Assembly (NCBI GenBank): GCA_017536545.1
Contig: JAFXHF010000016.1
Span: forward strand, 1-64,000
DNA from: a bacterium
Lineage (GTDB): Bacteria > Cyanobacteriota > Vampirovibrionia > Gastranaerophilales > Gastranaerophilaceae
Length of the DNA: 64,000 nucleotides
Direction of reading: 5' to 3'
Below, in pieces: positions 1 to 39,948 of this stretch. Position 1 is the first letter of the stretch. Each line of letters begins with the position of its first letter. The translations under genes were made by a program, and so were the position numbers. The notes under the pieces are model-generated. The model saw only the letters and a list, made by a program, of their open reading frames with translations, made no database searches and was not told where the DNA came from.

Positions 1-282
1 CCTGTTGCTATTGATTTCTGTTTCTTTAGAGATAATAGACCAGAAGTTGTTGTAGATTTTGGTGAACGTATTGAAGTTACAAACGTGGAAGCCGAGATTG
101 ATAGAAAAGAATACACTAACTTCTTGGCTGCAAAATTAACTGAAACTTGTGATAAACAATTTATGAAAATTTCACAAGGTCAGGTTGAGGATTATGAATT
201 CTTATTTAAACCAAAATTAAAATGGTACAGACGTATTGAACAACGTCTAAAACGTATTGATATCCCTGAATCTGGCGTATAA
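1..282 (+). CDS. C-terminal end of a probable 1-acyl-glycerol-3-phosphate acyltransferase (5' truncated by the window)
   Basis: The reading frame is open from base 1 and ends at 280-282, so only the last 93 codons are present. The residues PVAIDF, then a basic-aromatic stretch and VVVDFGERI, resemble the region after the catalytic motifs of PlsC-type lysophospholipid acyltransferases, where a phrase like 'P-V-A-I ... R-P-x-V-x-V-x-F-G-x-x-I' is usual. These enzymes add the second acyl chain in phospholipid synthesis at the inner membrane. The catalytic HX4D motif would lie upstream and cannot be seen. The family call is therefore an inference from the tail alone. Confidence 0.45.
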   Translation, partial: PVAIDFCFFRDNRPEVVVDFGERIEVTNVEAEIDRKEYTNFLAAKLTETCDKQFMKISQGQVEDYEFLFKPKLKWYRRIEQRLKRIDIPESGV

Positions 283-315
283 TTGTTGCTATATGTAAAT
301 TTTGGGCTCAAGATG

Positions 316-343
316 GGCAAAAATCTTTTTTAGAGGATTTTAT
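316..343 (+). promoter_or_regulatory. GCAA-N18-TTTAT two-box promoter-like element
   Basis: GGCAA at 316-320 and TTTAT at 339-343 are separated by 18 bases. The second box ends 24 bases before the ATG at 368. The same pair, spaced 17-19, stands before at least nine other unusual genes in this window. Confidence 0.5.
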
Positions 344-367
344 AACCTTGAAAAGGAGAATTTATCT

Positions 368-811
368 ATGCAAATTTCAGCGATTACCCCAAATTATAAC
401 TATTCAGTAAATAACAATATGAAAAGAAATAATGTTTCTCAACCATCATTCCAAGGTGGTTTAAATAAGCTTGAAATGGACGTTGTATTACAACGTTTGG
501 CAAAAGTTAATGATGAAGTTTTTGAAAGTTTCAGTATGCCAAAATTAAGAGAAGTTATTGATTACCTTGTTAAAAGATATGAGTGTTTGGGTACTCGTTC
601 TTGTGGTATTCAGGTTGTAGGTAATGATGATTTACCAAAATTATTAGGTAAAGATGCGGCTGTGAAATATGATTTGAAAGATAAAATTGGTCTATGCGTA
701 GCAGTTGGTGATAAATATGGTCCGATTGAGAAAATGACAAACATTTATCAGGCAAAAACATTCTTGCTACACCCAAAAGAATTGGAAAAAATGAATCAAG
801 CGGTTTCTTAA
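368..811 (+). CDS. FxG-tagged protein of unknown function (147 aa)
   Basis: I do not recognise a family. The start is placed at ATG 368 because AAAGGAGAA lies at 352-360; an upstream in-frame ATG at 302 has no ribosome site. The first ~27 residues are Asn/Ser-rich and polar, then PSFQGG, the Phe-x-Gly tag shared with eight other proteins here. The rest is a small soluble domain with Cys-rich patches (ECLGTRSCGI) and no membrane segment or signal peptide. A GCAA-N18-TTTAT element precedes it and a strong hairpin terminator overlaps its stop codon. It converges on hydF. Confidence 0.75.
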   Translation: MQISAITPNYNYSVNNNMKRNNVSQPSFQGGLNKLEMDVVLQRLAKVNDEVFESFSMPKLREVIDYLVKRYECLGTRSCGIQVVGNDDLPKLLGKDAAVKYDLKDKIGLCVAVGDKYGPIEKMTNIYQAKTFLLHPKELEKMNQAVS

Positions 812-825
812 AAACCGCTTTTTTA
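798..825 (+). terminator. Rho-independent terminator
   Basis: AAGCGGTTT and AAACCGCTT pair around a short loop and are followed by a T run. The hairpin overlaps the stop codon of the 368-811 gene. It is nearly symmetrical and could also stop hydF transcripts coming from the other side. Confidence 0.8.
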
Positions 826-2025
826 GTGTTGTTTTCTAAAAATGTTTAGTGCTCTATCTAAAATGCCTAAGCAATATGAGATTGTGATTCCGTAGTTTGT
901 TATAGGAACTTGTTTCTGGCTTGAAATCAGAATTCTTGAAAGAATTTCTCTACGGTTTGTCATACAAGCTCCGCAGTGTATGATTAAACTATATTGACTA
1001 ATTTCAGGAAAGTCGTGTCCTGAATAATGTTCAATAACAAGTTCTTTCTCTGTTTTTTGTTTCAAAAGTCTAGGAATTTTAACTTTCCCAATATCATCTT
1101 CAATTGCGTGGTGTGTGCAACTTTCAAGGATTAGAACTTTATCTCCGTCTTTTAAATTTTCAATAGCTTTTGCACCTTTTTCAAACTCGGATAAATCACC
1201 TTTTAATCTTGCAAAAAGAATTGAAAAAGATGTTAGTGGAATTTCTTTTGGGACGATTGCATCAACTGTTTTAAATGCTTGAGAATCAGTTATAACAAGA
1301 CTTGGTGGATTTTTAAGATTATCTAACGTATCTTGTAATTCAGATTCTTTAACTACGATTGTTATACAGTTTGAATCAAGTAAATCTCTAATTGTCTGAA
1401 CTTGAGGTAAAATAAGTCTGCCTTTTGGTGCTTCTTTATCGATTGGTGTAACTAAAATTACTGTACTTTTTTCTGGAATTAAATCCCCTGCAATTTTTGG
1501 TGAATTTACGAATTCTTCAGGTAATAATTTTACTAAAACCTCTTTAAATCTATGAGTTAAATTATCATCAGTTTTTGTTGATGTAATTAAAATATGAGGA
1601 CAAATATTGTTTAATTCAGCTAAAGTATTATCATTTATCCCTTGGAGATCTGTTTTATTAACCACAATTATAAATGGTATTTTTAATTCATTAAATTTCT
1701 CAATTAACCCGTGTTCAAAATCATCTATGCCATTGTAGTCGCAGATAATTATGGCAACATCTGTCCTGTTTAGAACTTTTAGAGTTTTTTCCACACGATC
1801 TTTACCCAAATCTGAAAAATCGTTTATCCCTGCAGTATCTAAAAATGTCACAGGGCCAATAGGCAAAAGTTCCATTGATTTTTCAACAACATCTGTAGTT
1901 GTTCCTGCGATATCTGACACAATAGAAATATCTTGATTAGTAATTCTATTTAGAAAAGATGATTTACCAACATTTGTTTTTCCAAAAATACCTATATGAA
2001 GACGCATAGATTTTAATGATTTCAT
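823..2025 (-). CDS. hydF: [FeFe]-hydrogenase H-cluster maturation GTPase HydF
   Basis: HydF is the scaffold GTPase on which HydE and HydG build the 2Fe subcluster before it is passed to the hydrogenase. The N-terminal Era-like GTPase domain shows the P-loop GKTNVGKS (residues 15-22), a TTTD switch, DTAG and NKTD. The C-terminal cluster domain has the diagnostic C-x-H (C303, H305) and, 44 residues later, HCGAC (H350, C351, C354). The length of 400 aa is normal. GAGGGG precedes the ATG. HydE, HydG and the hydrogenase are not in the window. Their presence elsewhere is inferred, and it implies anaerobic H2 metabolism. Confidence 0.95.
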   Translation of the reverse strand: MKSLKSMRLHIGIFGKTNVGKSSFLNRITNQDISIVSDIAGTTTDVVEKSMELLPIGPVTFLDTAGINDFSDLGKDRVEKTLKVLNRTDVAIIICDYNGIDDFEHGLIEKFNELKIPFIIVVNKTDLQGINDNTLAELNNICPHILITSTKTDDNLTHRFKEVLVKLLPEEFVNSPKIAGDLIPEKSTVILVTPIDKEAPKGRLILPQVQTIRDLLDSNCITIVVKESELQDTLDNLKNPPSLVITDSQAFKTVDAIVPKEIPLTSFSILFARLKGDLSEFEKGAKAIENLKDGDKVLILESCTHHAIEDDIGKVKIPRLLKQKTEKELVIEHYSGHDFPEISQYSLIIHCGACMTNRREILSRILISSQKQVPITNYGITISYCLGILDRALNIFRKQH

Positions 2026-10126: not shown

Positions 10127-10693
10127 ATGGAAATAAGAAATATAAATAATACCCCAAAATTTACTGGAATATACAGGTTTCCAAATGTTGATGCAAAAAC
10201 CGTTGCAAATATTTCGGAGCATATGACTTTTTTTGCAGGTGTTACAAGAAGTCCTGTGTATATGTTTGCGGGAAAGCATCCACTGGAAGCAAAAGTTGTA
10301 GAAGTTATCACAGAAACAGTTCCAGAATGTAAACAATATTCTTATGATTGGCTTGTTCAAAATGCGAAAAATTTTGGCTTAACTTTACCTACTTCTGGTA
10401 ATGTTGATGCGTGGGTTTTTACTAATAAAGAGGTTTCTCTTATAAAAGAATGTTGTGAAAAATTTGATTCAATTTTAAAAGGGAAAAAGTCTTTTTGGAG
10501 TTCTTTGAAAAGCTTATTTGTTGTTTCAGATACTCCTAAAAAGAGATTACCAAGTCATTTGAAAGAATTGGAAGAGTTAGTGAGCACGAATGAGAAAATG
10601 GTTGAAATTTTCCAACAAGTAATTCAAGACAAAAAAGTTGTGAAAGTTGATAGTCTTCATAATTTAATTTTTTCAGTATCTACAAAAGGTTAA
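10127..10693 (+). CDS. FxG-tagged protein of unknown function (188 aa)
   Basis: No family recognised. The first residues are polar (EIRNINN) and then TPKFTG, with the tag Phe at position 12. The remainder is a mixed alpha/beta soluble protein with a Lys-rich helical C-terminus. There is no signal peptide or membrane span. The start has AGGA eight bases upstream. Its stop codon overlaps that of the convergent gene at 10690 by four bases (TTAA), leaving no room for a terminator between them. Confidence 0.75.
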   Translation: MEIRNINNTPKFTGIYRFPNVDAKTVANISEHMTFFAGVTRSPVYMFAGKHPLEAKVVEVITETVPECKQYSYDWLVQNAKNFGLTLPTSGNVDAWVFTNKEVSLIKECCEKFDSILKGKKSFWSSLKSLFVVSDTPKKRLPSHLKELEELVSTNEKMVEIFQQVIQDKKVVKVDSLHNLIFSVSTKG

Positions 10694-19375: not shown

Positions 19376-19492
19376 TAATAGATTTATTATTTTCAGTTAT
19401 TCTTCCTCTTGCAAAGTATTATTACAAAATGTATAAATACATGAATTTTGGCGTTTTTTGTATATAATATTATTAAAAACGTAGGAGGTTCA

Positions 19493-20617
19493 ATGGAAAA
19501 TATCGTTTCAAGTTTTGGAAATAATAATGAAAGATCAAGTATAAACCCTACACGCATCAAAGTTATTGGTGTTGGTGGCGGTGGCGGAAACGCTGTTAAT
19601 AGAATGGTTAAAGCTAAACTTGCTGGTGTTGAATTCTGGCAAATGAATACAGATTTACAAGTTTTGACATTCAGTGAAGTTCAAAATAAATTACAATTAG
19701 GTACATCAACAACTAAAGGTCTTGGTTCTGGTGGCGACCCAGCTACTGGTGAAAAAGCTGCTATGGAAGCGAAGGAAGAAATTACAAGAGCTTTAGAAGG
19801 TGCTGATATGGTGTTCATCACTGCTGGTATGGGTGGTGGAACTGGTACTGGTGCAGCTCCTGTTGTAGCTCAAATTGCTAAAGATTTAGGTATTTTGACA
19901 ATCGCATTCGTTACAAAACCTTTCCGTTGGGAAGGTAAGAAAAGAATGGCTCAAGCTGAAGCTGGTATTGAAAAATTGAAAAAATACACAGATTCAATTT
20001 TGGTTGTTCCAAACGATAAATTACTTCAAGTTGTTGAAAGACAAATGGGCTTAAGAGAAGCATTCTGTGTAACAGATGAAGTTCTTTATAGAGGTATCCA
20101 AGGTATTTCTGACATCATCACAATCCCTGGTATGATTAACATCGACTTTGCTGATGTTAGAAAAGTTGTTAAAGATTCTGGTACAGCATTGATGGGTATT
20201 GGTAGAGCTCAAGGTGAAGGTAGAGCAATTAAAGCTGCTGAAATGGCTATTAATTCTCAACTCCTTGAATCTTCAATTGATGGTGCTCGTGGTATTATCG
20301 TTAACATTACTGGTAGCTCAAATATGACATTATATGAAATTACTGATGCTACAAATATTATCAATAATGTTGTAAGAGATGATGCTGATGTAATCATTGG
20401 TACTGCAATTAACGAAGCATTCCAAAATGAAATTCAAATTACAGTTATTGCAACTGGGTTTGCTGAAAAATCTCAAAATTCAATTAATACTCCACAATTA
20501 TCAGCTGCAGAGTATTTTCAAGGGAAAACAACAACTTCATCATCTTCAACAGGTGATTTGAGTTTTCCTAAAATGCCATCTATGAGCTTGGATGTTCCAG
20601 ATTTCTTAAAAAGATAG
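19493..20617 (+). CDS. ftsZ: Cell division protein FtsZ
   Basis: FtsZ is the tubulin-like GTPase that forms the division ring. The nucleotide loop [13 protein letters not shown] (residues 26-38) and tubulin signature [12 protein letters not shown] are intact. The C-terminus has a short Ser/Thr linker and the partner-binding peptide DVPDFLKR. The start is ATG 19493, after TAGGAGG; 374 aa. It stands alone, without ftsA or ftsQ, as in Cyanobacteria. Confidence 0.98.
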
Positions 20618-20632
20618 GTGGTAATTAGATAT

Positions 20633-20665
20633 AAAAAAGAGGAAGTTTTTACTTCCTCTTTTTTT
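20633..20665 (+). terminator. Rho-independent terminator of ftsZ
   Basis: AAAAGAGGAAGT and ACTTCCTCTTTT pair around TTTT with a T7 tail. It abuts the stop codon of the convergent giant gene and can act from both sides. Confidence 0.9.
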
Positions 20666-20666
20666 A

Positions 20667-23600
20667 TTAAAATTCAGCATCATAATCGTCAGAACTTTTG
20701 GTGTGAAATTCTAACTCGTCATAGTGTCGACCTGTATATTTTGTTGCGAAATCTTCAACTTTTTGAATTTCTGCCAGATATTTTTCTCTTAATTCAATAG
20801 CTGGTGAATTTGGAGGTATTTGAAGTTGTTTAATCAAGTCGATGTATCTTTGATAGCCTTTTAATGCCGAATTTAGCTTATTAACGTCTGCTTTCGCAAG
20901 ATACTCTATACCAGATTTTAAATTTTCCATATGTAAATATAATAGAGCTGTTTTTGGATGTTGTGGGTGTTTTTCGATTTCGTCTAACAAATCGTTAAAT
21001 GAAGCATCAACTAATTTGTCAATTTTTCTATAATTTGTATTGTGAACTCGACGTTTAAGAGTTTGTCTTAAATCTTCTAGTTTTTGTGCCCAGTCTGGGT
21101 CATTGTCGATGTTTCCAAGTTTTGTAATCTCTTTTTTAACTGCTTTTAGTTGAGTGTTAGCTGATGTAAATATGCTATCAATACGTTTAATGAATTTGCA
21201 CATTCTCTTCGTATTTATATTTTTGGCATATAGTTCGATTACTCGTTCTGATAGACCAAGTTGTTCTATGAAAAGAAGTGCAGTTTTTTCATCTGTACCA
21301 TGAATTAGTGGAGTTAAGATTATATTGAGAGCTTCATCTGAATCTAGTGAAACAGTTCTTCCATCTTTCAATTGAAGTTGTGAATTTCTAAATTCATCCC
21401 TTACAATATTTAGGTTACCTTCTTTTGCACATTCCATAATGATATATTGCATATCTAGAATATTTGCAATTTCTAGGGCACCTTGAATATTGTGTCTATA
21501 TACCTCTTTAACATCTTGTAATTGAACTTTTTCTTGTTCAGAATATTTTCGTTTATCATCATCTGAAGGTTTTGCAAGAAGTAGCATATATTCGTTTAGC
21601 ATTTCTTCAGGTCTTTTAAGAATTCGATGTTTCTTTGTAAATTCTTCAAAATCGGCAAAAATTTCTGGAGCATTATCTTTATTTTTTACTCTAGCTTTGA
21701 TGTATTTATCTAATAATTCGTATGCTCTATTTTGGTGTTTTGGAGCAAAAACATTCATCACAAATGCTCGTTTGCGAGTTTCAATTTCTTTAATTTCTTC
21801 TTTAGCAGAATCCAACATTGTTTTACCGTCAAGTGTAGTTGCATACATACTCATTTCGTTAAACATTGTTGTAATAAGTTCTTGTAGTTTTGCATAATTT
21901 ACATTATCTTCAAGTGCAAGTATGTCTTGGCCAGCCTTGATTGTGTCTGCAATTGACTCATCTTCACCAAATATTTCAAGAATACTATAAATTTTATCGT
22001 TTACATATTTTCTATCTTTTGCACTTGGAATATCTTCTGGAGATTTTTCCCATAAGAATTTATAAACTTCAGTTATTGTGTTGTACGCAGTATCTTTTTC
22101 TTTATAATCTTCAATATCTTCCATTGATTCATTGATACCATTGAAAAGATTTCTGATTAGAACTTCTTCTTCTTTGGCTTCTTCCATATCAATTTTCGGA
22201 TAAGCAAAATAAACATTATACTTGTCAAATAGAGTTTGTTGTAATGGTTTATATCTTTTATTAGGTAGAGAAAGAAGCATTAGCGAATAATAATAATCTA
22301 GATATAGGTCATCCAAGGTTCGTTTATTTTTATAAGTTGCACCACGGAGAACTTTGCCAAATTTGTTAAAATCATAAATTGGGGTAGTTTCACCCATTTT
22401 TACGTTATATTCATAATCTTGATAATAAAGCATAGAAAATAGCATATTCTCAGTTTTTTCATCCATTGCAAGGAATTGTTTTAGGATGTCATAGCCTGTG
22501 ATTGGTTTAATTCCAAGTGCTTGATCATCAATTGTAGAATTATATTTTTGTTCAAATTCTTTAGTTGTCATATTTTGCATTTCAGTAAAAATTTGAACAA
22601 ATTCTTCATCTGAATATGGAGAAGCTACATTATCAATCCAATTGATAATATGTTTAGGTAGTTTCTTTTTAACAGATGAAGAATCGTCCAAATCGGCCAA
22701 CGTGAATCCTAAATTAGTACGTAACATATCCCGTACTTGGTTAGCCAAATCTGTAATTTGTTTATCTTTATTTTCTGCTTTTGGAAGTTTAGTAGTTAAT
22801 GTTTGCGTAAAGTTAGCTATCATCAAATCAATTGTTTTGTTTAAGCTACCATCGAACTCTGCTTTGTTAATTCCTTTTAGAGAGTTAATCAAATTAGTAA
22901 TTTGTTTTTTGGTAATTCTGATGTTATTTTCTTTAGCAAATTTTTCTAATAGTTTTGTAACATCTTCTCTTACGCTTTCTGTTCCATATTGTGTGATTTC
23001 TGGGTTTTTACCAAAAGCGTAGTTAAAGTTTTTACGTGCATCTAATCTGATTAATTCTTTGTTTCTTTTCAAATCTTCCATTGTTGTATGCTTAAAGAAG
23101 ATTTTTTCATCAGGTAGTTCGCTGTATGATTTTAGTAGTGCAATTTTTTCAAATAGAACTTTTAATTGGTCGCTATCTGGTAATTTGTCGTAAGCTTCTT
23201 TTGTTTGTATTCCTTTATCAAATGGTTGGTTACCAAAGACTCTGCGTTGAATTCTTAAGAAATCATTGTAAGCATATTCACCGATGAATTTTGTTTTATT
23301 GATAATATCTCGAACTTCAGTTTGAGTTTTTTCAGATGTTAGTTTTTCAAAGTGTTTAAAATCTCTTACAGGGTTAATCAATGTATTTTGTCTAATTCTT
23401 CTAACTTGCATATCTGCAAGTGGAGACTTACCTGCTATTGTAGTATCTTCGTGCATAGCAAAACGATACTCTTCAGTTTCAGCTAGTTTTGTTTTGCCGA
23501 TTTCATTTTGAAGGTTTTCTACAAGTTTACCATTTAGGTATTTGCTATCAGTGATGTATCCTAATTCACCGCCAAATCTTCTTCTATAATCGGTTCTGGT

Positions 23601-26531
23601 TAATTCAGCTTCATCAACCCAAGTGTTTGCGTGCTCTGTTGGCCCCCAAGAGTTATCATGGAATAGAGCTTCTTTTGTTTCAAATCCATTTTCAGTTCTT
23701 ATCATTACATCTCTAATATCTGCTACATATTGAGCGTGCATAGCTGGGTGTCTATGGTTAACGGATGTACCTGTTACACCTGAATATGGTGAAGATTTGA
23801 TTTTCGCAATCGCAAGTGGACCATTTGTTTCAGCATAATATGGTCTATCTGTCATGTGTTCAAAAATTCTTACTTGTTGGCTTGCATCAAGTCCAGATTT
23901 TCCTTCACTCATATATTCATGACCCTTTTTAAACCCAACTTCTCTGTGTAGTTCGTTAAGTTCTTCTTGGATATCTTTATGTTGGTATTTTAGGGATCTT
24001 GTTACTGATGAGTACCATTGATTAATTTTTTTCTCAATTTGGTCTAGGACTTCTTTTTCGTGTTTTGAGAAAGTAAATAATTCGATTGGTAAATCTTTTA
24101 ATTCTAGTTCTACGCCATTATGATTTGTTAAGGCGTTTGAAATTTGAGAAAATCTTTCTTGTAACATTCTCAAATCTTTTTCAGGGATGATAGTACCAGA
24201 ATTTTCAAGTTTTTTCATAATGATAGGTTTTGCCATTACGGTATTTAGAATTGTGCCATCATCATCGCGAACTTCTAGTATTTTTTGGAATATGGTAGTA
24301 ATTTTTGCAGTTTCGTTAAAGTTATTACCGATATACTGCATTATTTGTCCAATTTCATCCATAGTTGCTTCAGGTGGAAGGTTATGAAGGGTTTTAAATT
24401 TGGTAATTATTTCTTCTCTTGGTGGGTTTTCTAAAAATACTTCGTTTAATTCTTCATATTTTTCTTTAAAGTCTTGCATAAGACTTTTATTCCCAATAGA
24501 GTTGAAAATTTGGATATATTGTTCTTCAGTACAATCCTTACTTTGTAGAATTTTTGTGTATCTATCAAGAACATCAAGAACTTTACGCTTATCTTCTTTT
24601 ACGTCTAAATTAGATGCCATCATTCCTAGAACTATAGGTTTATTTGCTTTGATAGCTTTTCTAGCGACATCAATATCGTTGATTAATGCATCTTTTCTAC
24701 TACCAAGTAGAATATTTTCATAAAAACTATCCATAACATCTGTCATTATATAGATGAATGATTCTTTATTTGTTTTTAGAGCTTCGATTAGAAATTCTGG
24801 GTCATTTTCTGTTCCAAGGTTTCTTGCTAAACCTTCTTGAATTTTTGGATTTAGTTTACCATCTTCTAATTTTTTGATTAACATATCGATATTCTTGATA
24901 ATACGAGTTTCTCTATCTGGAATTTTGTGAACGATAGTTAAATCTTCAAGGACTTCAGGGATTTCTAACCCCCATTTGTATTGTGTTCTATATGTCGCAG
25001 CAGCTTCATATAAACCTTTGGCTCTGCTATAAACTCTTGCTTGATAACTTCTTGATTGACCTTCACTTAGATTATTGATAGATTGAACTAATTCTAGAAT
25101 TTCTGGAGTTCTTTGTTCTAATTTTTCTAGGTTTTTGTTAGGTAAACTGATAGATAAAAACGCATTGATTTTTTCTCGTTTTGCTCTTTCAGTTTCGTTT
25201 GGTAAGAATACAAAATCACGGGTGTAGTCTTTAACCTTGTCGGCTTTGCTCGAATTGCGTACTTCAAGTCGCAATAAGTCTGTAAAGACGGTTCTAAGTG
25301 TTTGCGAGTCAGTATCAGGTGCGATTTCAGCTAAGATACTTCTCAATGTTGAATTTAGTTTAACTACTGCCTTAATATTACCTCTTGCTTTTTGTACATC
25401 ATTTTCTTTTTGTGCTTTTTCCATTCGTTTTTTATAGCTACCAATAGCATCTTTAGCTTTTAATAAGGTTCTATAATAATCCTGTTTTGCTTCTAATTCT
25501 TTTGTTGGTAAATTAGGCATCAAATGGCAATCGTGGAATGTGTCAAAGTCTTCTTTGTCAAAAGTGCTATACATCCCAATAAATTCATTACCTGAACCTG
25601 TTGTGTTTGCAATATGCATCCAGTAAAGGGCAGAAGTATCAATAATTCTATAACCTTTTGATAGGGCATAATCAAAATCTAAACGAGTTTTTGAAATAGG
25701 AACTTTTGTTCCTGAGCCAAGTTTATTTATATCGTAAACCATAAGAACTGGAGAGTCATCAAGTTCAGACATAATAATATCAACAAAATTTACCTTGTCT
25801 TCGTAAGCAAGAGCTTTTCGACAAATGGAAATAGCAGCACACATACCGTGTTCTAGCTGGTTAATAGCTTTGATATTTGGGATTTTTGATTCAGGAGTAT
25901 CAACTGTGATGTCATTGATAATCTCAGCTAGAGCTTGAGTTTTTTTGTTCGCAAGTTGGGGATTAATTTTATACTCAGGACTCATAAAATAGTTTAATTG
26001 CTTCAAGATGTATAATTTTTGAGCAGTTGAAACTTCTGATGAAATGATAAAATAATCAAGATTTCTGCCCAATTGTTTAATATTTTCACTTTCAATTTTC
26101 TCAAGCTGTTTAGGGTCAACTTTCGAAATGATTGCTGAGCGAAGTTCTAGAAGTTGTTTTTCTTCTTCTGATAGGGGTTTTGACTTGCGTAATTGTTCTA
26201 ATCTTGGGGTTAATCTTTCCTGCACTTCTGGTGATGATTTTGCTAGGGATTTTCTGATTGCATCATCAAGTTTTACTTGCCAATCGTTGAATTGGCTTTT
26301 TCCTAAATCGATACGAGTTTGATATCTTAAATTTTCTGCAACATCAAGTAAAAATTCGGCATTTTCCTGCCCTGATACTTCTGAAAGACTTTCTATTGCG
26401 TTGTTAATACGTCTTTGGTTAATCGTGTTTAAACTATAAGGATTGTTTTCTTTTAGCTGAGCTACGGCTTTTCTATCTTCTCTTTTGCCCTTAAAATTTT
26501 GAGCAAATGGATTTATGTTATATATTTTCAT
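20667..26531 (-). CDS. Giant FxG-tagged protein with a papain-like cysteine protease core (1954 aa)
   Basis: The product opens with QNFKGK (tag Phe at 13). Near residues 224-235 NQLEHGMCAAIS matches the papain (C1) active-site phrase: Q225 (oxyanion) is six residues before C231, as in papain. The matching His (H932 in AMHAQYV) and Asn (N960 in HDNSWGP, the NSWG signature) come some 700 residues later, so a very long helical insertion splits the fold. The remaining ~1000 residues are mostly alpha-helical and charged, with no recognised domain. No signal peptide and no membrane span were seen. GCAA-N19-TTTAT and AGGGAAAAAT precede the ATG. It is probably a cysteine protease or a transglutaminase/hydrolase relative; the substrate is unknown. 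Confidence 0.8.
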   Translation of the reverse strand: MKIYNINPFAQNFKGKREDRKAVAQLKENNPYSLNTINQRRINNAIESLSEVSGQENAEFLLDVAENLRYQTRIDLGKSQFNDWQVKLDDAIRKSLAKSSPEVQERLTPRLEQLRKSKPLSEEEKQLLELRSAIISKVDPKQLEKIESENIKQLGRNLDYFIISSEVSTAQKLYILKQLNYFMSPEYKINPQLANKKTQALAEIINDITVDTPESKIPNIKAINQLEHGMCAAISICRKALAYEDKVNFVDIIMSELDDSPVLMVYDINKLGSGTKVPISKTRLDFDYALSKGYRIIDTSALYWMHIANTTGSGNEFIGMYSTFDKEDFDTFHDCHLMPNLPTKELEAKQDYYRTLLKAKDAIGSYKKRMEKAQKENDVQKARGNIKAVVKLNSTLRSILAEIAPDTDSQTLRTVFTDLLRLEVRNSSKADKVKDYTRDFVFLPNETERAKREKINAFLSISLPNKNLEKLEQRTPEILELVQSINNLSEGQSRSYQARVYSRAKGLYEAAATYRTQYKWGLEIPEVLEDLTIVHKIPDRETRIIKNIDMLIKKLEDGKLNPKIQEGLARNLGTENDPEFLIEALKTNKESFIYIMTDVMDSFYENILLGSRKDALINDIDVARKAIKANKPIVLGMMASNLDVKEDKRKVLDVLDRYTKILQSKDCTEEQYIQIFNSIGNKSLMQDFKEKYEELNEVFLENPPREEIITKFKTLHNLPPEATMDEIGQIMQYIGNNFNETAKITTIFQKILEVRDDDGTILNTVMAKPIIMKKLENSGTIIPEKDLRMLQERFSQISNALTNHNGVELELKDLPIELFTFSKHEKEVLDQIEKKINQWYSSVTRSLKYQHKDIQEELNELHREVGFKKGHEYMSEGKSGLDASQQVRIFEHMTDRPYYAETNGPLAIAKIKSSPYSGVTGTSVNHRHPAMHAQYVADIRDVMIRTENGFETKEALFHDNSWGPTEHANTWVDEAELTRTDYRRRFGGELGYITDSKYLNGKLVENLQNEIGKTKLAETEEYRFAMHEDTTIAGKSPLADMQVRRIRQNTLINPVRDFKHFEKLTSEKTQTEVRDIINKTKFIGEYAYNDFLRIQRRVFGNQPFDKGIQTKEAYDKLPDSDQLKVLFEKIALLKSYSELPDEKIFFKHTTMEDLKRNKELIRLDARKNFNYAFGKNPEITQYGTESVREDVTKLLEKFAKENNIRITKKQITNLINSLKGINKAEFDGSLNKTIDLMIANFTQTLTTKLPKAENKDKQITDLANQVRDMLRTNLGFTLADLDDSSSVKKKLPKHIINWIDNVASPYSDEEFVQIFTEMQNMTTKEFEQKYNSTIDDQALGIKPITGYDILKQFLAMDEKTENMLFSMLYYQDYEYNVKMGETTPIYDFNKFGKVLRGATYKNKRTLDDLYLDYYYSLMLLSLPNKRYKPLQQTLFDKYNVYFAYPKIDMEEAKEEEVLIRNLFNGINESMEDIEDYKEKDTAYNTITEVYKFLWEKSPEDIPSAKDRKYVNDKIYSILEIFGEDESIADTIKAGQDILALEDNVNYAKLQELITTMFNEMSMYATTLDGKTMLDSAKEEIKEIETRKRAFVMNVFAPKHQNRAYELLDKYIKARVKNKDNAPEIFADFEEFTKKHRILKRPEEMLNEYMLLLAKPSDDDKRKYSEQEKVQLQDVKEVYRHNIQGALEIANILDMQYIIMECAKEGNLNIVRDEFRNSQLQLKDGRTVSLDSDEALNIILTPLIHGTDEKTALLFIEQLGLSERVIELYAKNINTKRMCKFIKRIDSIFTSANTQLKAVKKEITKLGNIDNDPDWAQKLEDLRQTLKRRVHNTNYRKIDKLVDASFNDLLDEIEKHPQHPKTALLYLHMENLKSGIEYLAKADVNKLNSALKGYQRYIDLIKQLQIPPNSPAIELREKYLAEIQKVEDFATKYTGRHYDELEFHTKSSDDYDAEF

Positions 26532-26560: not shown

Positions 26561-26589
26561 ATAAACGTTGATGAATAATATTTTTTGCC
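26561..26589 (-). promoter_or_regulatory. GCAA-N19-TTTAT two-box promoter-like element
   Basis: GGCAA (26589-26585) and TTTAT (26565-26561) are 19 bases apart, 29 bases before the ATG of the giant gene. Confidence 0.55.
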
Positions 26590-26712: not shown

Positions 26713-26994
26713 ATGAATAATCAACCTGAAGTTATACAATATCAGACATCTGGAACTTGTTGTCAGGTGATGCAGGTGGCAATTCTTGATGGAAAGATAT
26801 TAGAAGCAGAATTTTATGGCGGATGTCATGGAAATTTGCAAGGAATTAAAAGTCTGATTAAAGGGATGTCTGTTGATGAAGTGATTGAAAAATTACAAGG
26901 GATTAAATGTGGTCCAAAATCAACAAGTTGTCCTGATCAATTAGCACAATGTTTAATTGAATATAAACAAAAAAGTCTTACACAATCAAAGTAG
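26713..26994 (+). CDS. TSCPD domain protein
   Basis: The 93-aa protein ends with the family-naming TSCPDQLAQCL, after CCQVMQV, GGCHGN and CGPK. These Cys-rich phrases match the short TSCPD proteins (TIGR03905 type), which are related to a domain at the C-terminus of ribonucleotide reductases and of NrdJ partners. Its biochemical role is unknown; metal or Fe-S binding is plausible from the five conserved Cys. It is followed 10 bases on by the NifX-like gene, so the two form an operon. Confidence 0.85.
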   Translation: MNNQPEVIQYQTSGTCCQVMQVAILDGKILEAEFYGGCHGNLQGIKSLIKGMSVDEVIEKLQGIKCGPKSTSCPDQLAQCLIEYKQKSLTQSK

Positions 26995-27466: not shown

Positions 27467-30400
27467 TTATAATCTCCAGTTCATACCACCTTGGAAAATT
27501 ACACCAAGACGTCCAACATTTCTAATGGTTGCTTGACCGTACATATTAAATTTGTCAGAGAATGATCTTGTGAAACCGAAGCCATATTGTAGATATCCAT
27601 TTTTCATTTCTATGTCGGATAATCCAACATTTCCAGCTTCTCCGCCCATTCCTGGGATAAAGTTCCAAGCATAAGCCACTGTTGCGTATGTACTCCAATC
27701 TTCGTGGTCAATTACGAAATTCACTCCAGGAGCAATATTAAAGCCATTCAAGAATCCTGCGGTCATACTCATTTGACCGAAATTACTATGCCAGTTTTGT
27801 TGACCGAATAAGTTATAAGCAAGAGTCAAGTTTGGTTGAACTTTGAAGTGTGATTTAGTTATCCAATCATAAGATGATTTTGTTGCCACACCTAAGAAAT
27901 AGTTGAATGCATCTTCTGAGTATCCTGCAACATCAATATTTGCTCCGTATACACCAACATAAGCAAGTGCTGAGTGCATAGCTTTATCTTTCATAAATGT
28001 TCCCATAAAGCCTGTTTGAGCACCGTTTTGCCACATTCCAACTCTATCATAAGTTTGGCGTCCACCATTGTATGCCAAGTAAGCTGTTGGCATCCAACTC
28101 CAACCATTTTTAAGATCTCTTAGTCCGAAATCTCCACCAACAATGAAGCCCCAAGCGTTATTTCTAACTTTATCTACACCAGCATTAACTCTAAGTGTTT
28201 CCATGTTGCCATAGACTTCAGTCCAAATTTGACCATCACGAAGAGTTCTTTCATAGCTTGCATTTCCGTCAAGAACTGCTGTCTTATTCTTAAACATCTG
28301 ATTGCCATTTGATGCAAAGTGTCTGATGTGTGCACGGTTGAACATTGTGTCATTAAACGCAAGTTGGTTCATATATGATGCTAAGTTAGAAACTTGACCA
28401 CGATATACTTCTGGGTTAAATCTAGCTAAATCGAAAGTATAACTACCATCATTTGCTGATGAAGGATTCAATTTATAGTAACCGATTGGTGTAAACACTT
28501 CTTTATCAGTTGCGGCAAAAGTTACTTCTTTTCCTAAATCATCGGTTTGGAATATTTTGCCCAATCTAATACTTTTATCAATTGGAGCATCATATCCGAA
28601 GATATCTCCACCCAAATTGTAATCTGAAATTCTAATTGTACCTTCTGTGTCGCTTGTTGCAACTCGGATTGAATTTGCAGTAATTGTATCAGTTGATGCC
28701 TGAGCATTGCTTCTTGCGTTGATGTCTATTGCAAAATTCGCAACTCCACCACCATATTCGCCATTATTGATTGTTAAATTATTGATTACACTATTGGTTC
28801 TAACTCTGTTTGCCATATTGATTAAACCAGATGTATCAATATTGATTTGATTTCCACCAGTAACTTGGATTAGTCCTTGCTCCGCAAGATAATTCATAAC
28901 TGATGTGTCATCAATTATAACATTTCCACCTTGATAAGCTGGGCTATTCGTTGAAAATGTTAGTGTAGAACCTTCTTTTAAGCTCAAGTTTCCGCCAGTA
29001 ATTGCACTGTTAGTGTCTGAAAGAACTAATGTTGAATTATTTAAGAATGTGTTACCGCCAGTTTGCACAAATGTACCAACATCTGTTGTAACTTTTGTTA
29101 GGTCATCTGAAATGTATAAATTACCACTTGTAACTTCTATATGACCATTTGTTTTATCATTTTTAGTCAAGTTTACTTCTGTGGTATTGCCGTTTAATTT
29201 AAGTTTTGAACCTGCTTCGATTTCTACAACAGAATCTTTATCCACAACACCGTCTGTTGTTGTGTATGTGCTATTGTTTTTAATTGTGAAATTACTACCT
29301 GTTACGTTTAATGCTGAAGAATTATTTTGACCATTCAATATGCTCAATTTACTTCCTTCAGTGACATTAACTGTTCCGCCTGTGATAGTACTACCTGACT
29401 CATTTAGTGTTAGTGATGAGTTGCCAGAAATGTTTGCGATACCACCAGATTGAACATAAATTCCAGTAGCAGATGTTGTTTTTTCGATACCATTTTTAAG
29501 GTTTAATGTTCCATTTGCAAGTGCTAAATGTCCGTCAAATGTGTCATTAGCTCCATCAAGTGTTACATTTGTATTTTCTCCACTAAGTATGAATGTTGAA
29601 CCACTTGATAAGTTAACTTTTGAAGCTTCGTCAATAGTTCCATTTGTAGTTGTGTATTTACTTCCTGTACATAATGAGAAAGTTCCGCCTGTTGAATTAA
29701 GTTCGGAAGTATTGTCTGAAGCGTTATTAACATTAAGTTCACCAGTAGAAGTGATATTTACTGTTCCACCTGTAATTTTGCTATTTGCATTATCTAATGA
29801 TAATTTTGAATCATCAATGTTAGTAATACCGCCAGTTTGATTAAACTTAGCAGAACTTGTAGTTCTTATGTTTGTTTTATTAGCAACTAAGTTTAATGTT
29901 CCGTTAGAAACTTTGATTTCGCCATCCCAACGGTCATCAGCGTCAATATTTGTAGTACCACCCTTAATGTCTAAAGTACCATTTTGAGTAATATCAATAT
30001 TAGCATTTGTTTCAATTATGCCGTTTTGAATTTCTAGTGTGCCAGTATCAGTTGCTGTACCAATATTAACATTACCGCCTGAAATTGCGTCTTTAGAATT
30101 ATTTAAAACGTTTGTGTTTGTAACTGTTAAATTACCGCCAGTTTGTTTAAATGTGCCTGAAGGATTTTTAGTAATACCTGCAAGATTTAGTGAACCATTT
30201 GCAAGGTTTACACTACCGTCCCAGATATCTGCACTGTCTAGAGTTACGTTGCCACCAGTGATATTGATTGAGCTATCTAAGGCAAGATTAGTTGTTACAT
30301 TTCTATCTATTGCACCTTTGGAAACATTCAAAGTTGCGGCTGCTGAATTAGTTCCAATATTAAGAGTTCCACCACTTAATAAGTCATTTGTATTGTTTAA

Positions 30401-32989
30401 TTCAAAAGTGGTATCACTAATAGTTGTTGTGCCAGCAGTTTGTTTTAAGATTGCATCATTTGATTTTGTAATCCCAATAAGTGCAAGGCTTCCACCTGAT
30501 ACATTTACATTTCCATTCCAAGTATCTTTATTGTCAAGAGTAACATTACCACCTGAGATATTAAGTGTAGCATTTGAGTTTACGTTTGTTGTTGCTCCAG
30601 ATAGAATTGTACCTTGAGATACCCCAACTGTAGTTAAAGTTGTTCCGTTGCCGATATTAAAGGTTCCACCTGATACGTTATCAGATGCGTTATTTAAGTT
30701 AAAACCTGTACCCGTAACTGTTGTAATTCCGTCATTTTGTGCGAAAGTTCCAGTTGCATTTTTAGTTGCATTATCAATAGTTAGAGTTCCACTTGAAACA
30801 TTAACTGCACCATTCCAATTAGTGTAATTTCCTAGTGCAACTGTGCCCCCTGAAACATTTAATGCTCCTAAATTGTTGATTTCAACTGTTGTATTTCCAC
30901 CGATAGAACCTTTTGAAACATTTAGGCTTGAGTTTTCTGTTCCATTTCCGATTTTTAATGTTCCGCCAGTTATACTATCAGATGCATTATTCAAATCAAG
31001 GCCTGTTTTTGTAACTGTTGTTGTTCCACTAGTTTGTGTAAAAATACCACCCTTATTTGTAATTCCAACAAGAGCCAAGCTTCCGCCATTAACGTTGATA
31101 TTTCCACTCCATGTATCGGTGTTATCAAATGCAACTGAACCACCTGAAATATTCATAGCAGTACTTTTGTTTAGTTTTACTGTTGCTCCACTACCAATCG
31201 ATCCATCTGAAACATTTATGGTTGTTCCATTTTTGATATCAAGTGTTCCACCAGAAATATTATCGGCAGAATTGTTGAGATTAAATTGAACCGCTTGTAT
31301 TGAAGTATAACCACCTGATTGAGTGAATTTTGCATTTGTTTTTTTATCTAAGTTGTTTATTGATAATGTTCCGTCTGTAATGTTTAAATCACCGTTCCAA
31401 GTGTCGCCACTATCAAGTTCAACTTCTCCACCTGTAACACTTAATTTTCCGTTTCTGTTAATATTAACAGTTGCTGCGGATTCGATATATCCTTGAGAAA
31501 CACTTACTTCAGTGTTGGTAGTTTTGTTTCCAACATTAAATACACCACCAGAGATAATATCATCGCCGTTATCTAGGTCAAAACCAGATCCTACAACAGT
31601 TGTTTTACCGCCAGTTTGAGTAAAGTTTGCAGTTAAGTCTTTTGAAACATTGTTAAGAGTTAGTTCACCACTAGAAACATTAATTGTTCCGTCCCAATCA
31701 GAAGTTGAATCAAGGTCAACAAATCCACCATTAACATTTAATGTTGAACGATTGTTAATATCTACTGCAGTATTGGTAATTGCACCTTTTGATACGGACA
31801 TTTTTGAAGAAGTAATGCCATTACCAATTGTTAGATTTCCACCTGTAATATAGTCGCTTTCATTGTTCAAATCAAAAGTATTACCAGTTATTGTGGTTGT
31901 ACCATTTGTTTGTGTAAATGTTGTGTTATTTGATTTTGTAATTCCAACAAGAGCAAGACTACCTGAAGAAACATTTAAGTTTCCTTTTAGGGTATCATCA
32001 GCATCAAGGGTAACGTTACCACCTGAAACGTTAAGGGTACTTTTTTCTGTTAAATTAACTGTTGAATTTGTTGTAATAGTTCCGCTTGATACGTTTAATT
32101 TTGAAGTTGTTGTACCATTTCCAACATTTAATATTCCACCATCGATATTGTCGGAGGTTTTGTTCAAATCAAATTTGGTTCCAATAACGTTAACAGTACC
32201 ATCAGTTTGAGTCAAAGAACCTGTTTTTTGAGTATTATTGATATTAAGAGTTCCTCCTGTCATATCGATAATACCATTCCAAGTGTCAGTTGAATCTAGG
32301 TTGATTTCTCCGGCAGAAAAATCTATATCCCCATCAGCTGTAAGGTTTATGGTTGCATCTTGTGAGATTGTACCTTTACTCATTGTTATAGTTGTAGAGT
32401 TGCCAGTTGTACCAATATTTAAGGTTCCTCCACTGACTTCATCAAGAGAATTGTTAAAGCTAAGATTTCCAGTAACTGTTGAGGTTCCGCCAACTTGGAT
32501 AAAAGATCCGTCAACGCTTTTGTTTACGTTATTAAGAGTTAATGTGCCATTTTCAAGGCCAACAATACCCTCCCAAGTATCTGTAGAGTCTAATGTTGCA
32601 TTTCCTCCCATAACAGCAAGAATTGAGCTCGAAGAAATATTTGTATTTACCGCATTTGCGATTGAGCTTCCACTATTAATTGAAAGAGTTCCGCCATTTA
32701 GGTTTAATGTTCCACTACTAGCTGTTATTGTATCATTTATAATTGAGGCAGTGTAACCGGATACATCTAGAGTTCCACCATTAAGATTTATTTCGATTGA
32801 ATCTGTGTCTCCAAGTTTCCAAGTCTGAGTAATGCCACCTAGATCACTAAATTCGAATACCCCAGCAGTAGCTGTGGCTGATTTTCCCGAAGGGATATCT
32901 ACAGTTGCTGGATAAGCAGAAATTCCTGTATTACTTACTATCGCAATACAGGCCGCAACAGCCATAAATCTCTTCATTTTTCTATTCAT
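27467..32989 (-). CDS. Large autotransporter with a repeat-built passenger (1840 aa)
   Basis: There is a signal peptide (about 1-25: basic, then AVAACIAIVSNTGISA). The passenger, about residues 30-1450, is made of roughly a dozen degenerate 97-99-residue repeats rich in Gly, Thr, Ser and Asn. Each holds SGGxLNIGNG, LNVSGGNVTLD, DxWxG and FTQTxGTTTV phrases, typical of a right-handed beta-helix. The last ~270 residues are an autotransporter barrel (WTEVYGN, GFIVGGDFGL, LAYNGGRQ, ending NWRL). It would be displayed on the cell surface, likely in adhesion. The long antisense frames over it arise from its biased codons and are not genes. Confidence 0.93.
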   Translation of the reverse strand: MNRKMKRFMAVAACIAIVSNTGISAYPATVDIPSGKSATATAGVFEFSDLGGITQTWKLGDTDSIEINLNGGTLDVSGYTASIINDTITASSGTLNLNGGTLSINSGSSIANAVNTNISSSSILAVMGGNATLDSTDTWEGIVGLENGTLTLNNVNKSVDGSFIQVGGTSTVTGNLSFNNSLDEVSGGTLNIGTTGNSTTITMSKGTISQDATINLTADGDIDFSAGEINLDSTDTWNGIIDMTGGTLNINNTQKTGSLTQTDGTVNVIGTKFDLNKTSDNIDGGILNVGNGTTTSKLNVSSGTITTNSTVNLTEKSTLNVSGGNVTLDADDTLKGNLNVSSGSLALVGITKSNNTTFTQTNGTTTITGNTFDLNNESDYITGGNLTIGNGITSSKMSVSKGAITNTAVDINNRSTLNVNGGFVDLDSTSDWDGTINVSSGELTLNNVSKDLTANFTQTGGKTTVVGSGFDLDNGDDIISGGVFNVGNKTTNTEVSVSQGYIESAATVNINRNGKLSVTGGEVELDSGDTWNGDLNITDGTLSINNLDKKTNAKFTQSGGYTSIQAVQFNLNNSADNISGGTLDIKNGTTINVSDGSIGSGATVKLNKSTAMNISGGSVAFDNTDTWSGNINVNGGSLALVGITNKGGIFTQTSGTTTVTKTGLDLNNASDSITGGTLKIGNGTENSSLNVSKGSIGGNTTVEINNLGALNVSGGTVALGNYTNWNGAVNVSSGTLTIDNATKNATGTFAQNDGITTVTGTGFNLNNASDNVSGGTFNIGNGTTLTTVGVSQGTILSGATTNVNSNATLNISGGNVTLDNKDTWNGNVNVSGGSLALIGITKSNDAILKQTAGTTTISDTTFELNNTNDLLSGGTLNIGTNSAAATLNVSKGAIDRNVTTNLALDSSINITGGNVTLDSADIWDGSVNLANGSLNLAGITKNPSGTFKQTGGNLTVTNTNVLNNSKDAISGGNVNIGTATDTGTLEIQNGIIETNANIDITQNGTLDIKGGTTNIDADDRWDGEIKVSNGTLNLVANKTNIRTTSSAKFNQTGGITNIDDSKLSLDNANSKITGGTVNITSTGELNVNNASDNTSELNSTGGTFSLCTGSKYTTTNGTIDEASKVNLSSGSTFILSGENTNVTLDGANDTFDGHLALANGTLNLKNGIEKTTSATGIYVQSGGIANISGNSSLTLNESGSTITGGTVNVTEGSKLSILNGQNNSSALNVTGSNFTIKNNSTYTTTDGVVDKDSVVEIEAGSKLKLNGNTTEVNLTKNDKTNGHIEVTSGNLYISDDLTKVTTDVGTFVQTGGNTFLNNSTLVLSDTNSAITGGNLSLKEGSTLTFSTNSPAYQGGNVIIDDTSVMNYLAEQGLIQVTGGNQINIDTSGLINMANRVRTNSVINNLTINNGEYGGGVANFAIDINARSNAQASTDTITANSIRVATSDTEGTIRISDYNLGGDIFGYDAPIDKSIRLGKIFQTDDLGKEVTFAATDKEVFTPIGYYKLNPSSANDGSYTFDLARFNPEVYRGQVSNLASYMNQLAFNDTMFNRAHIRHFASNGNQMFKNKTAVLDGNASYERTLRDGQIWTEVYGNMETLRVNAGVDKVRNNAWGFIVGGDFGLRDLKNGWSWMPTAYLAYNGGRQTYDRVGMWQNGAQTGFMGTFMKDKAMHSALAYVGVYGANIDVAGYSEDAFNYFLGVATKSSYDWITKSHFKVQPNLTLAYNLFGQQNWHSNFGQMSMTAGFLNGFNIAPGVNFVIDHEDWSTYATVAYAWNFIPGMGGEAGNVGLSDIEMKNGYLQYGFGFTRSFSDKFNMYGQATIRNVGRLGVIFQGGMNWRL
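28700..32600 (-). repeat. Tandem ~290-base coding repeats in the autotransporter passenger
   Basis: Degenerate units of about 97-99 codons recur end to end. In the first listed unit the order is GGxLNVGNG, SKLNVSSGTI, STLNVSGGNVTLD, KGNLNVSSGSLALVGITK, FTQTNGTTTITG, FDLNN. At least eight clear units and about four more diverged ones are visible. The limits are approximate. Confidence 0.8.
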
Positions 32990-39030: not shown

Positions 39031-39948
39031 ATGTCTTATTATGATGAGTTGCTGGAAAAAATCCCCAAGATAAAAAGAGTTTTGGATGATGATACAAATT
39101 GTCCGATTTATCATTATACAAAACCTGAAAAGTTGTTAAATATATTGTCTTGTGGTGCAATAAGGTTTTCTAACGCTCTGTATCTTAATGACAAAGAAGA
39201 AATTGCGTATTCTTACAAATTGATTGTCAATCTCATTGATGAATTTTCAAATGAGGGTTTAAATCCTGACCTTTTTGATAAAGTTAAGGCACATTTTCGC
39301 AATAAATACAAGCATATCATAGATGGTGATAATGATTTTGTGAACAAATTAGAGTATTTTACAACATCGTTTTCGACTGAGAGTGATAATTTAACGCTTT
39401 GGAATAACTATGCCAAGGGTAAGAATTATACTGGTTATAATATTGGTTTTGATAAACATAAGTTTATTACTGGTATGATAGAAAGTGGTTATCTACCAGT
39501 ATATGGTAGTGTAATTTATGATAAACATAAGCAAGTTAAGATTATTCATGCGATATTTAAAAAATGGAATCAGTTATTCAATCGTGCTTTAAAAGCGAAA
39601 AAGAATAATGAAGTTAAACTTTTTGATATTTTGTTTGAATTATTAGATGTTCTAAGTATTGTTAGTATATTTTTCAAAAATCCACAATTTGAATACGAAA
39701 GAGAATATCGTATTGTTATAGTTAATGTATATGGTATTGAAGGTTCAAAACCAACTGGAATTGTTGAGAAAAATGGGTTATTTGTACCATATTTAGAGTA
39801 TAAATTTTCAAAAGATGCAGTCAAATCAATAAACATTGGCCCAACATTTGATGAAAATATTTTCTATACAAGCACAAATAGAATGCTTCACAATTTTGGT
39901 TATGAAGATATTGAAGTTTATCGTTCGAAAATACCTTTAAGGTACTAA
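39031..39948 (+). CDS. DUF2971 family protein
   Basis: The 305-aa protein shows the DUF2971 signature: IYHYTKPEKLLNILSCGAIRFSNALYLND, then FSTESDNLTLWNNYA, GYNIGF and YEREYRIV. Members are of unknown function and are often found in variable gene regions. GAGG precedes the ATG. An inverted repeat overlaps its -10 box. Its stop codon overlaps the stop of the convergent FxG zincin by four bases (39945-39948). Confidence 0.8.
   Translation: MSYYDELLEKIPKIKRVLDDDTNCPIYHYTKPEKLLNILSCGAIRFSNALYLNDKEEIAYSYKLIVNLIDEFSNEGLNPDLFDKVKAHFRNKYKHIIDGDNDFVNKLEYFTTSFSTESDNLTLWNNYAKGKNYTGYNIGFDKHKFITGMIESGYLPVYGSVIYDKHKQVKIIHAIFKKWNQLFNRALKAKKNNEVKLFDILFELLDVLSIVSIFFKNPQFEYEREYRIVIVNVYGIEGSKPTGIVEKNGLFVPYLEYKFSKDAVKSINIGPTFDENIFYTSTNRMLHNFGYEDIEVYRSKIPLRY

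What the first reader, a model, noticed from the sequence alone, without database searches (positions are those of the whole stretch)
20667..26531. Giant protein with a papain-like active site split by a ~700-residue insertion
Q225 and C231 (NQLEHGMC), H932 (MHAQYV) and N960 (DNSWG) are in the order and local context of C1 papain-like proteases, with the same Q-to-C spacing as papain. The gap between Cys and His is ~700 residues against ~130 in papain. The family should be new or highly diverged. It carries the FxG tag and the GCAA-TTTAT element.
Basis: partly seen in the sequence, partly recalled or inferred. Interest (0 to 1): 0.75.

Follow-up and report, generated by a model that had tools for sequence, protein, structure and literature searches.

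The report
Giant split papain-fold protease family
Uncultured gut bacteria related to cyanobacteria carry a 227-kDa protein whose protease-type active site is cut in two by a ~525-residue helical block yet is predicted to fold together like papain and calpain; it is a previously unrecognised enzyme family that can now be tested.

Summary
Window 20667-26531 (-) is one 1954-aa ORF with Q225, C231, H932 and N960 as described. In 105-108 aligned homologues these are invariant, and C231, H932 and Q225 are the only conserved residues of their kinds in the first 1040. AlphaFold2 with 64 homologues gives a confident model (pLDDT 90.8, pTM 0.84). The top structural matches use residues on both sides of the gap and are papain-like proteases: calpain core Z 11.1, staphopain 9.9, small papain-like toxin domains 9.7 (9l5u at 2.4 A). 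Sequence profiles (Pfam, NCBIfam, PDB) see none of this, even with the insertion removed. So it is a new family of the papain clan (CA), not shown to be C1. The inserted block is ~525 residues (344-869), not 700; natural short forms lack 543-767. The family is confined to Gastranaerophilales as far as searched, single-copy, patchy, under purifying selection (dN/dS 0.11), with clean empty sites. It bears a conserved disordered F-x-G/S N-terminus and a promoter-like element that other tagged genes in the genome appear to share. Activity, catalytic distances, substrate and location are untested.

The parts
20667..26531 (-). gene for the 1954-aa (227 kDa) giant split papain-fold protein
   Evidence: ORF; homologues with the same architecture; dN/dS 0.11 vs close relatives
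26561..26588 (-). promoter-like element GCAAAAAATATTATTCATCAACGTTTAT upstream of the start codon
   Evidence: element class enriched upstream of homologues (25/70 vs 4.1 in dinucleotide shuffles); PWM from other genomes scores this gene 13.4
26484..26531 (-). disordered N-terminus (residues 1-16) with F-x-G/S tag (F13, G15); invariant R17 follows
   Evidence: F13 106/108, G/S15 107/108, R17 108/108; pLDDT<50 for residues 1-13; no hydrophobic signal segment
25965..26483 (-). N-terminal helical domain, residues 17-189
   Evidence: model; weak matches to helical-repeat proteins only
25503..25964 (-). first half of the papain-like catalytic domain, residues 190-343, with Q225 and C231
   Evidence: model; VIA-align matches from residue ~189
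25857..25859 (-). codon of Q225 (oxyanion-hole Gln position)
   Evidence: 108/108
25839..25841 (-). codon of C231 (predicted nucleophile, first residue of helix 231-244)
   Evidence: 108/108; model
23925..25502 (-). all-helical insertion, residues 344-869, between the two catalytic halves; holds the near-invariant E776 (107/108)
   Evidence: model
24231..24905 (-). part of the insertion (residues 543-767) naturally absent from ~1375-aa homologues
23424..23924 (-). second half of the catalytic domain, residues 870-1036, with H932 and N960
   Evidence: model; VIA-align matches to residue ~1034
23736..23738 (-). codon of H932
   Evidence: 106/106
23652..23654 (-). codon of N960 in DN[ST]WG
   Evidence: 105/105
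20670..23423 (-). C-terminal helical region, residues 1037-1954, no recognisable fold match
   Evidence: model of 1000-1954 pLDDT 87.9, pTM 0.79; only common-helix matches
20631..20662 (-). terminator-like inverted repeat (AAGAGGAAGT..ACTTCCTCTTTTTT) after the stop codon, between this gene and the convergent ftsZ
   Evidence: sequence read

Best explanation
It is a cysteine peptidase of the papain clan (CA), in a family not described in the libraries searched. C231 (activated by H932, oriented by N960, with Q225 forming the oxyanion hole) would attack a peptide bond of a protein substrate by the standard papain mechanism. The catalytic domain is assembled from two sequence-distant halves (~190-343 and ~870-1036). 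The ~525-residue helical block between them, together with the N-terminal (17-189) and C-terminal (1037-1954) helical regions, would form a scaffold that selects the substrate and/or gates the active site. Shown: ORF, invariance of the four residues, domain-level fold prediction joining both halves, purifying selection, restriction to Gastranaerophilales as far as searched, accessory presence at a fixed site in one genus. Inferred: catalysis, peptide-bond chemistry, role of the insertion. Not known: substrate and cellular location; there is no Sec signal or membrane segment.
For: Q225, C231, H932 invariant and the only conserved residues of their kinds, N960 the only fully invariant Asn, across 105-108 diverged members. 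AlphaFold2 pLDDT 90.8, pTM 0.84, with pLDDT ~95 around C231, H932 and N960. Papain-like proteases fill about the first 33 structural ranks, using residues on both sides of the insertion: calpain-1 core Z 11.1 (218 residues, 4.4 A), staphopain C 9.9, 9l5u 9.7 (129 of 138 residues, 2.4 A), falcipain 8.4. hhalign, though far from significant, puts NQLEHGMCAAIS on NQGxxGSCxxxA of C1 and xHDNSWG on xxxNSWG in register, at a score about equal to that between C1 and C2, two accepted clan mates. Natural forms with C-H gaps of 467-479 keep all four residues. dN/dS 0.11.
Against: No sequence profile of any papain-clan family matches, even with the insertion excised. Foldseek on the long model gave no match at E<=0.001; the structural case rests on VIA-align Z of 8-11, above but not far above the usual background of 7-8. 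Interatomic distances were not measured. No biochemical evidence exists.
Confidence: 0.75

Rival explanations
1. A papain-fold enzyme that does not cleave peptide bonds but uses the same Cys-His-Asn centre for another acyl-transfer reaction, e.g. glutamine deamidation, transglutamination, acyl transfer or peptide ligation, on a protein target held by the helical scaffold.
For: The structural matches include papain-fold members with other chemistry or small toxin domains: phytochelatin synthase (Z 9.0), papain-like toxin domains (Z 9.7). Sequence divergence from all peptidase profiles.
Against: The complete Gln/Cys/His/Asn set with N-[ST]-W-G, as in C1-type peptidases, is invariant; the highest matches are true endopeptidases.
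Confidence: 0.18
2. A non-catalytic or structural giant helical protein in which the motif is a remnant.
For: No activity data; most of the protein is helical scaffold.
Against: All four catalytic positions are fixed while the C-terminal half diverges to 15-25% identity; dN/dS 0.11.
Confidence: 0.04
3. As to role: an exported or surface effector protease carried to other cells or the gut environment by a system recognising the F-x-G N-terminus.
For: Conserved disordered F-x-G/S N-terminus; promoter-like element apparently shared with other N-terminally tagged proteins of the genome; accessory distribution with exact empty sites; no operon partner seen in the neighbourhoods compared.
Against: No Sec signal or membrane segment; no VirB4-type T4SS ATPase match in the genome; the tag could equally be a domain edge or a processing or localisation signal; nothing shows export.
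Confidence: 0.3
4. As to role: a cytoplasmic regulated protease (for development, stress or anti-phage defence), gated through its helical parts.
For: Cytosolic-type sequence; one copy per genome in most cases; patchy presence with clean empty sites, as in defence or accessory loci; a giant scaffold with an embedded protease is a familiar regulatory layout (general knowledge).
Against: No PADLOC match, no meaningful PHROG match; neighbours in this genus are housekeeping genes, not a defence island.
Confidence: 0.4

Closest known systems
Calpain protease core (MEROPS C2; PDB 1kxr, 6bdt)
   Same: Best structural match (Z 11.1, residues 189-1034); Q-x5-C motif, H and N in the same order; two-lobed papain fold inside a larger regulated protein
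   Different: No PF00648 match for this protein; Cys is followed by Ala, not Trp; calpain cores lack a ~525-residue insertion; Ca2+ sites not tested
Papain family C1 (PF00112) and bleomycin hydrolase (PF03051)
   Same: Q-x5-C, H, N-S/T-W-G motifs; papain fold (falcipain-2 Z 8.4)
   Different: No profile match even with the insertion removed; Cys-His spacing 701 vs ~134 in papain (papain value from general knowledge); no Sec signal
Staphopain (C47) and small papain-like toxin domains (9l5u; CdiA-CT 8ssm)
   Same: Compact papain-fold core superposes (2.4 A over 129 residues for 9l5u)
   Different: 130-180 aa single domains; no sequence match
Ubiquitin-specific proteases with long catalytic-domain insertions (C19, e.g. 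USP25/USP28; PMC6255862, PMC6509359, abstracts read)
   Same: Precedent for a papain-clan enzyme with a long insertion in the catalytic domain that controls activity through assembly
   Different: Eukaryotic; no match found here; different motifs; insertions generally smaller (from general knowledge)

Membership tests
Clan CA (papain fold) | Cys, His, Asn/Asp in that order, Gln before Cys | tested here: met
   Q225/C231/H932/N960 invariant in 105-108 members
Clan CA (papain fold) | Papain-like two-lobed fold, nucleophilic Cys at the N-terminus of a helix, His and Asn on the sheet side | tested here: met
   AlphaFold2 model and VIA-align matches spanning both halves; a prediction, not a solved structure
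Clan CA (papain fold) | Catalytic residues within bonding distance | not testable with these tools
   No coordinates are returned; implied by the superpositions only
Clan CA (papain fold) | Cysteine-dependent peptidase activity | not testable with these tools
   Needs bench assay
C1 papain family (PF00112 / PF03051) | Match to the family profile | tested here: not met
   hmmscan of the full protein and of 15 insertion-free cores, E-value limit 10: no match; own genome has no PF00112 or PF03051 match
C1 papain family (PF00112 / PF03051) | Cys-His spacing near that of papain (~130) | tested here: not met
   467-765 in this family
C2 calpain family (PF00648) | Match to the family profile | tested here: not met
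   No PF00648 match for P0001; the genome's PF00648 matches lie elsewhere
C2 calpain family (PF00648) | CysPc-type fold | tested here: inconclusive
   Best matches are calpain cores (Z 10-11), but staphopain and other papain folds follow within ~1 Z
C2 calpain family (PF00648) | Ca2+-dependent activation | not testable with these tools
   no ligand information

The most novel reading that the evidence does not exclude
Gastranaerophilales possess a co-regulated class of proteins marked by an N-terminal F-x-G/A/S tag, delivered by an undescribed route; this giant is its protease member, whose two-piece papain active site is opened or closed by the inserted helical block on contact with its target.
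Probability: 0.25. Interest if true: 0.85.

Novelty: new variant of a known kind. Interest (0 to 1): 0.6.

Why it matters
If active, this is a papain fold with an exceptionally large block inserted between catalytic Cys and His, in a lineage (non-photosynthetic gut relatives of cyanobacteria) whose interactions with host and neighbours are little known. It gives a specific, mutable residue (C231) and natural long and short forms with which to test what the insertion does, and links the enzyme to a tag and promoter element that may define a wider protein class of these bacteria.

Tried and rejected
Sequence routes led nowhere: Pfam, NCBIfam, PHROGs, PADLOC, PDB sequences, phage, plasmid and viral-contig collections gave no relative. 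Foldseek against PDB and BFVD with the whole 1040-residue model gave nothing at E<=0.001; most hits follow the long helices. C-terminal model: no fold match beyond common helical arrangements (inconclusive, not proof of a new fold). Phage or mobile-element origin: no phage or plasmid match, neighbours are ftsZ, TSCPD and FeMo-Co domain genes; rejected as unsupported. Defence-island context: not seen. VirB4-type T4SS as exporter: PF03135 not found in the genome. Tag plus element as a simple regulon: a first test in 160 kb of the same contig with a loose pattern failed (Fisher p=0.48); a PWM built only from other genomes' homologues gave a weak but positive association (Mann-Whitney p=0.012 for F-x-[GS]), and by eye most top-scoring genes have an S/N/V-F-x-G/A-like N-terminus, but that wider definition was made after the fact. 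In the 64-kb window alone the association was not significant (p=0.12).

Full report
1. Observation. Window 26531..20667 (minus strand) is a single ORF of 1954 codons. A terminator-like repeat follows the stop. The protein has no hydrophobic signal or membrane segment, pI 5.9, 227 kDa, six cysteines.

2. Family. The genome holds one copy. Among 191 genomes of the same GTDB family 73 have a homologue; among 382 of the class 95 do, nearly all in the one family plus three genomes in two other families of the order. A scan of 84,980 species found only relatives titled Gastranaerophilales, Melainabacteria, Cyanobacteria MAGs or unnamed MAGs, many from rumen, deer, goat, horse and other guts; that scan used two conserved peptide patterns and kept the best 80 of 160, so very distant relatives could be missed. 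No phage, plasmid or viral contig encodes it. So it is an accessory, lineage-restricted gene, normally single-copy.

3. Conservation. In 70 aligned members identity to the query falls to ~23%, but Q225 and C231 are 70/70, H932 and N960 69/69. With 39 further sequences, including members from other families of the order, they stay fixed (108/108, 108/108, 106/106, 105/105), and C231, H932 and Q225 are the only Cys, His and Gln conserved at >=95% in residues 1-1040; N960 is the only Asn at 100%. W962, G963, E966, K221, R238 and R17 are also fixed; E776, inside the insertion, is 107/108. Close relatives give dN/dS 0.11. At the ftsZ locus five congeneric genomes without the gene have ftsZ directly next to the TSCPD gene (window 26713-26994), i.e. 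clean empty sites, while gene-bearing congeners carry it between them.

4. Structure. AlphaFold2 with 64 homologues gives mean pLDDT 90.8 and pTM 0.84 for residues 1-1040. Residues 1-13 are disordered. C231 is the first residue of helix 231-244; H932 lies in strand 931-946; N960 follows strand 949-959; local pLDDT ~95. Residues 344-869 are almost wholly helices between the two halves. VIA-align ranks papain-like proteases in about the first 33 places with both halves aligned: calpain-1 core 1kxr Z 11.1, 218 residues, 4.4 A, model 189..1034; staphopain C Z 9.9; 9l5u papain-like toxin domain Z 9.7, 129 residues of 138, 2.4 A, model 217..1034; CdiA-CT 8ssm 9.7; phytochelatin synthase 9.0; falcipain-2 8.4. 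The unrelated rows below start at 7.7. Foldseek alone, diluted by the long helices, had no match at E<=0.001 but did list falcipains. Without 344-869 the Cys-His spacing would be ~175, in the usual range of papain folds. Members of ~1375 aa lack 543-767 and have C-H gaps of 478-479, and an order-level relative has 467, so about 225 residues of the insertion are dispensable in nature. Coordinates are not returned, so distances between the catalytic atoms were not measured.

5. Sequence-level membership. No C1, C1-like, C2 or other papain-clan profile matches at E<=10, for the full protein or for 15 insertion-free cores; the insertion-free profile finds no papain in PDB sequences. hhalign of the core against cyanobacterial C1 domains aligns both catalytic motifs in register at scores too low for significance, but about as high as C1 against C2 (the C1 and C2 sets were small, 9 and 5 sequences). 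I therefore place it in clan CA by fold and catalytic residues and do not file it under C1 or C2.

6. C-terminal half. Residues 1000-1954 are predicted as helices (pLDDT 87.9, pTM 0.79) with no informative match.

7. Tag and promoter element. F13 (106/108), G/S15 (107/108) and R17 (108/108) are conserved in the family. An element of type [AG]CAA[AT]4-N6-13-[GT]TTT.. occurs upstream of 25/70 homologues against 4.1 in shuffles. A PWM built from homologues of other genomes (consensus TAgCAAAAAATaTTTTTTtcAttTTTT) ranks at its top, in 160 kb of the same contig and in the window, many proteins with an N-terminal S/N/V-F-x-G/A-like tag; with the plain F-x-[GS] definition the association is weak (p=0.012 in the independent stretch, p=0.12 in the window) and a simpler pattern gave none. 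FxG within the first 30 residues: 13 of 56 window ORFs against 3.4 expected.

8. Mechanism. Most likely a cysteine peptidase with the papain mechanism, whose helical insertion and flanks act as substrate scaffold or gate (confidence 0.75 for peptidase). Long catalytic-domain insertions that control activity are known in USP25 and USP28 (PMC6255862, PMC6509359; abstracts). Role and place of action are open; no literature on such a protein in Gastranaerophilales was found in the held library. The 2023 survey of papain origins (PMC10380794) tallies the Cyanobacteria/Melainabacteria group in a table of C1A presence or absence; the passages shown do not mention such a family.

9. Verdict. Real, more than chance, interpretation supported with corrections; a new variant of a known kind.

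Noticed in passing
G000:C24, locus L240:4550-16960 (-): A ~4136-aa ORF in the same genome with a calpain-like motif QGDIGDCW (PF00648 29.9 bits with its neighbours); not tagged.
   Followed up: partly
L239 (G000:C3), L241, L243, L244, L254, L256: Gastranaerophilaceae carry many shorter calpain-like proteins (QGxxGDCW), several with EF-hand-like acidic stretches in front, suggesting an expanded set of Ca2+-linked cysteine proteases.
   Followed up: partly
L245 (G296:C58): Two adjacent ~1200-aa proteins with N-terminal signal-like segments and PF00112 papain domains in a related genome.
   Followed up: no
window 302-811, 10127-10693, 39945-41384, 48589-50739: Other genes with an N-terminal F-x-G/A-type tag and the same GCAAAAAAT...TTTTA upstream element; no Pfam family at E<=0.001 for any of them.
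   Followed up: partly
window 19448-20617 and elsewhere in the genus: All seven congeneric genomes tested hold two ftsZ-like genes, at ~80-87% and ~63-68% identity to the window copy; the window genome's own second copy was not looked for.
   Followed up: no
window 27467-32989 (-): 1840-aa repetitive protein with signal-peptide-like start and autotransporter-like C-terminus, no Pfam match at E<=0.001.
   Followed up: no
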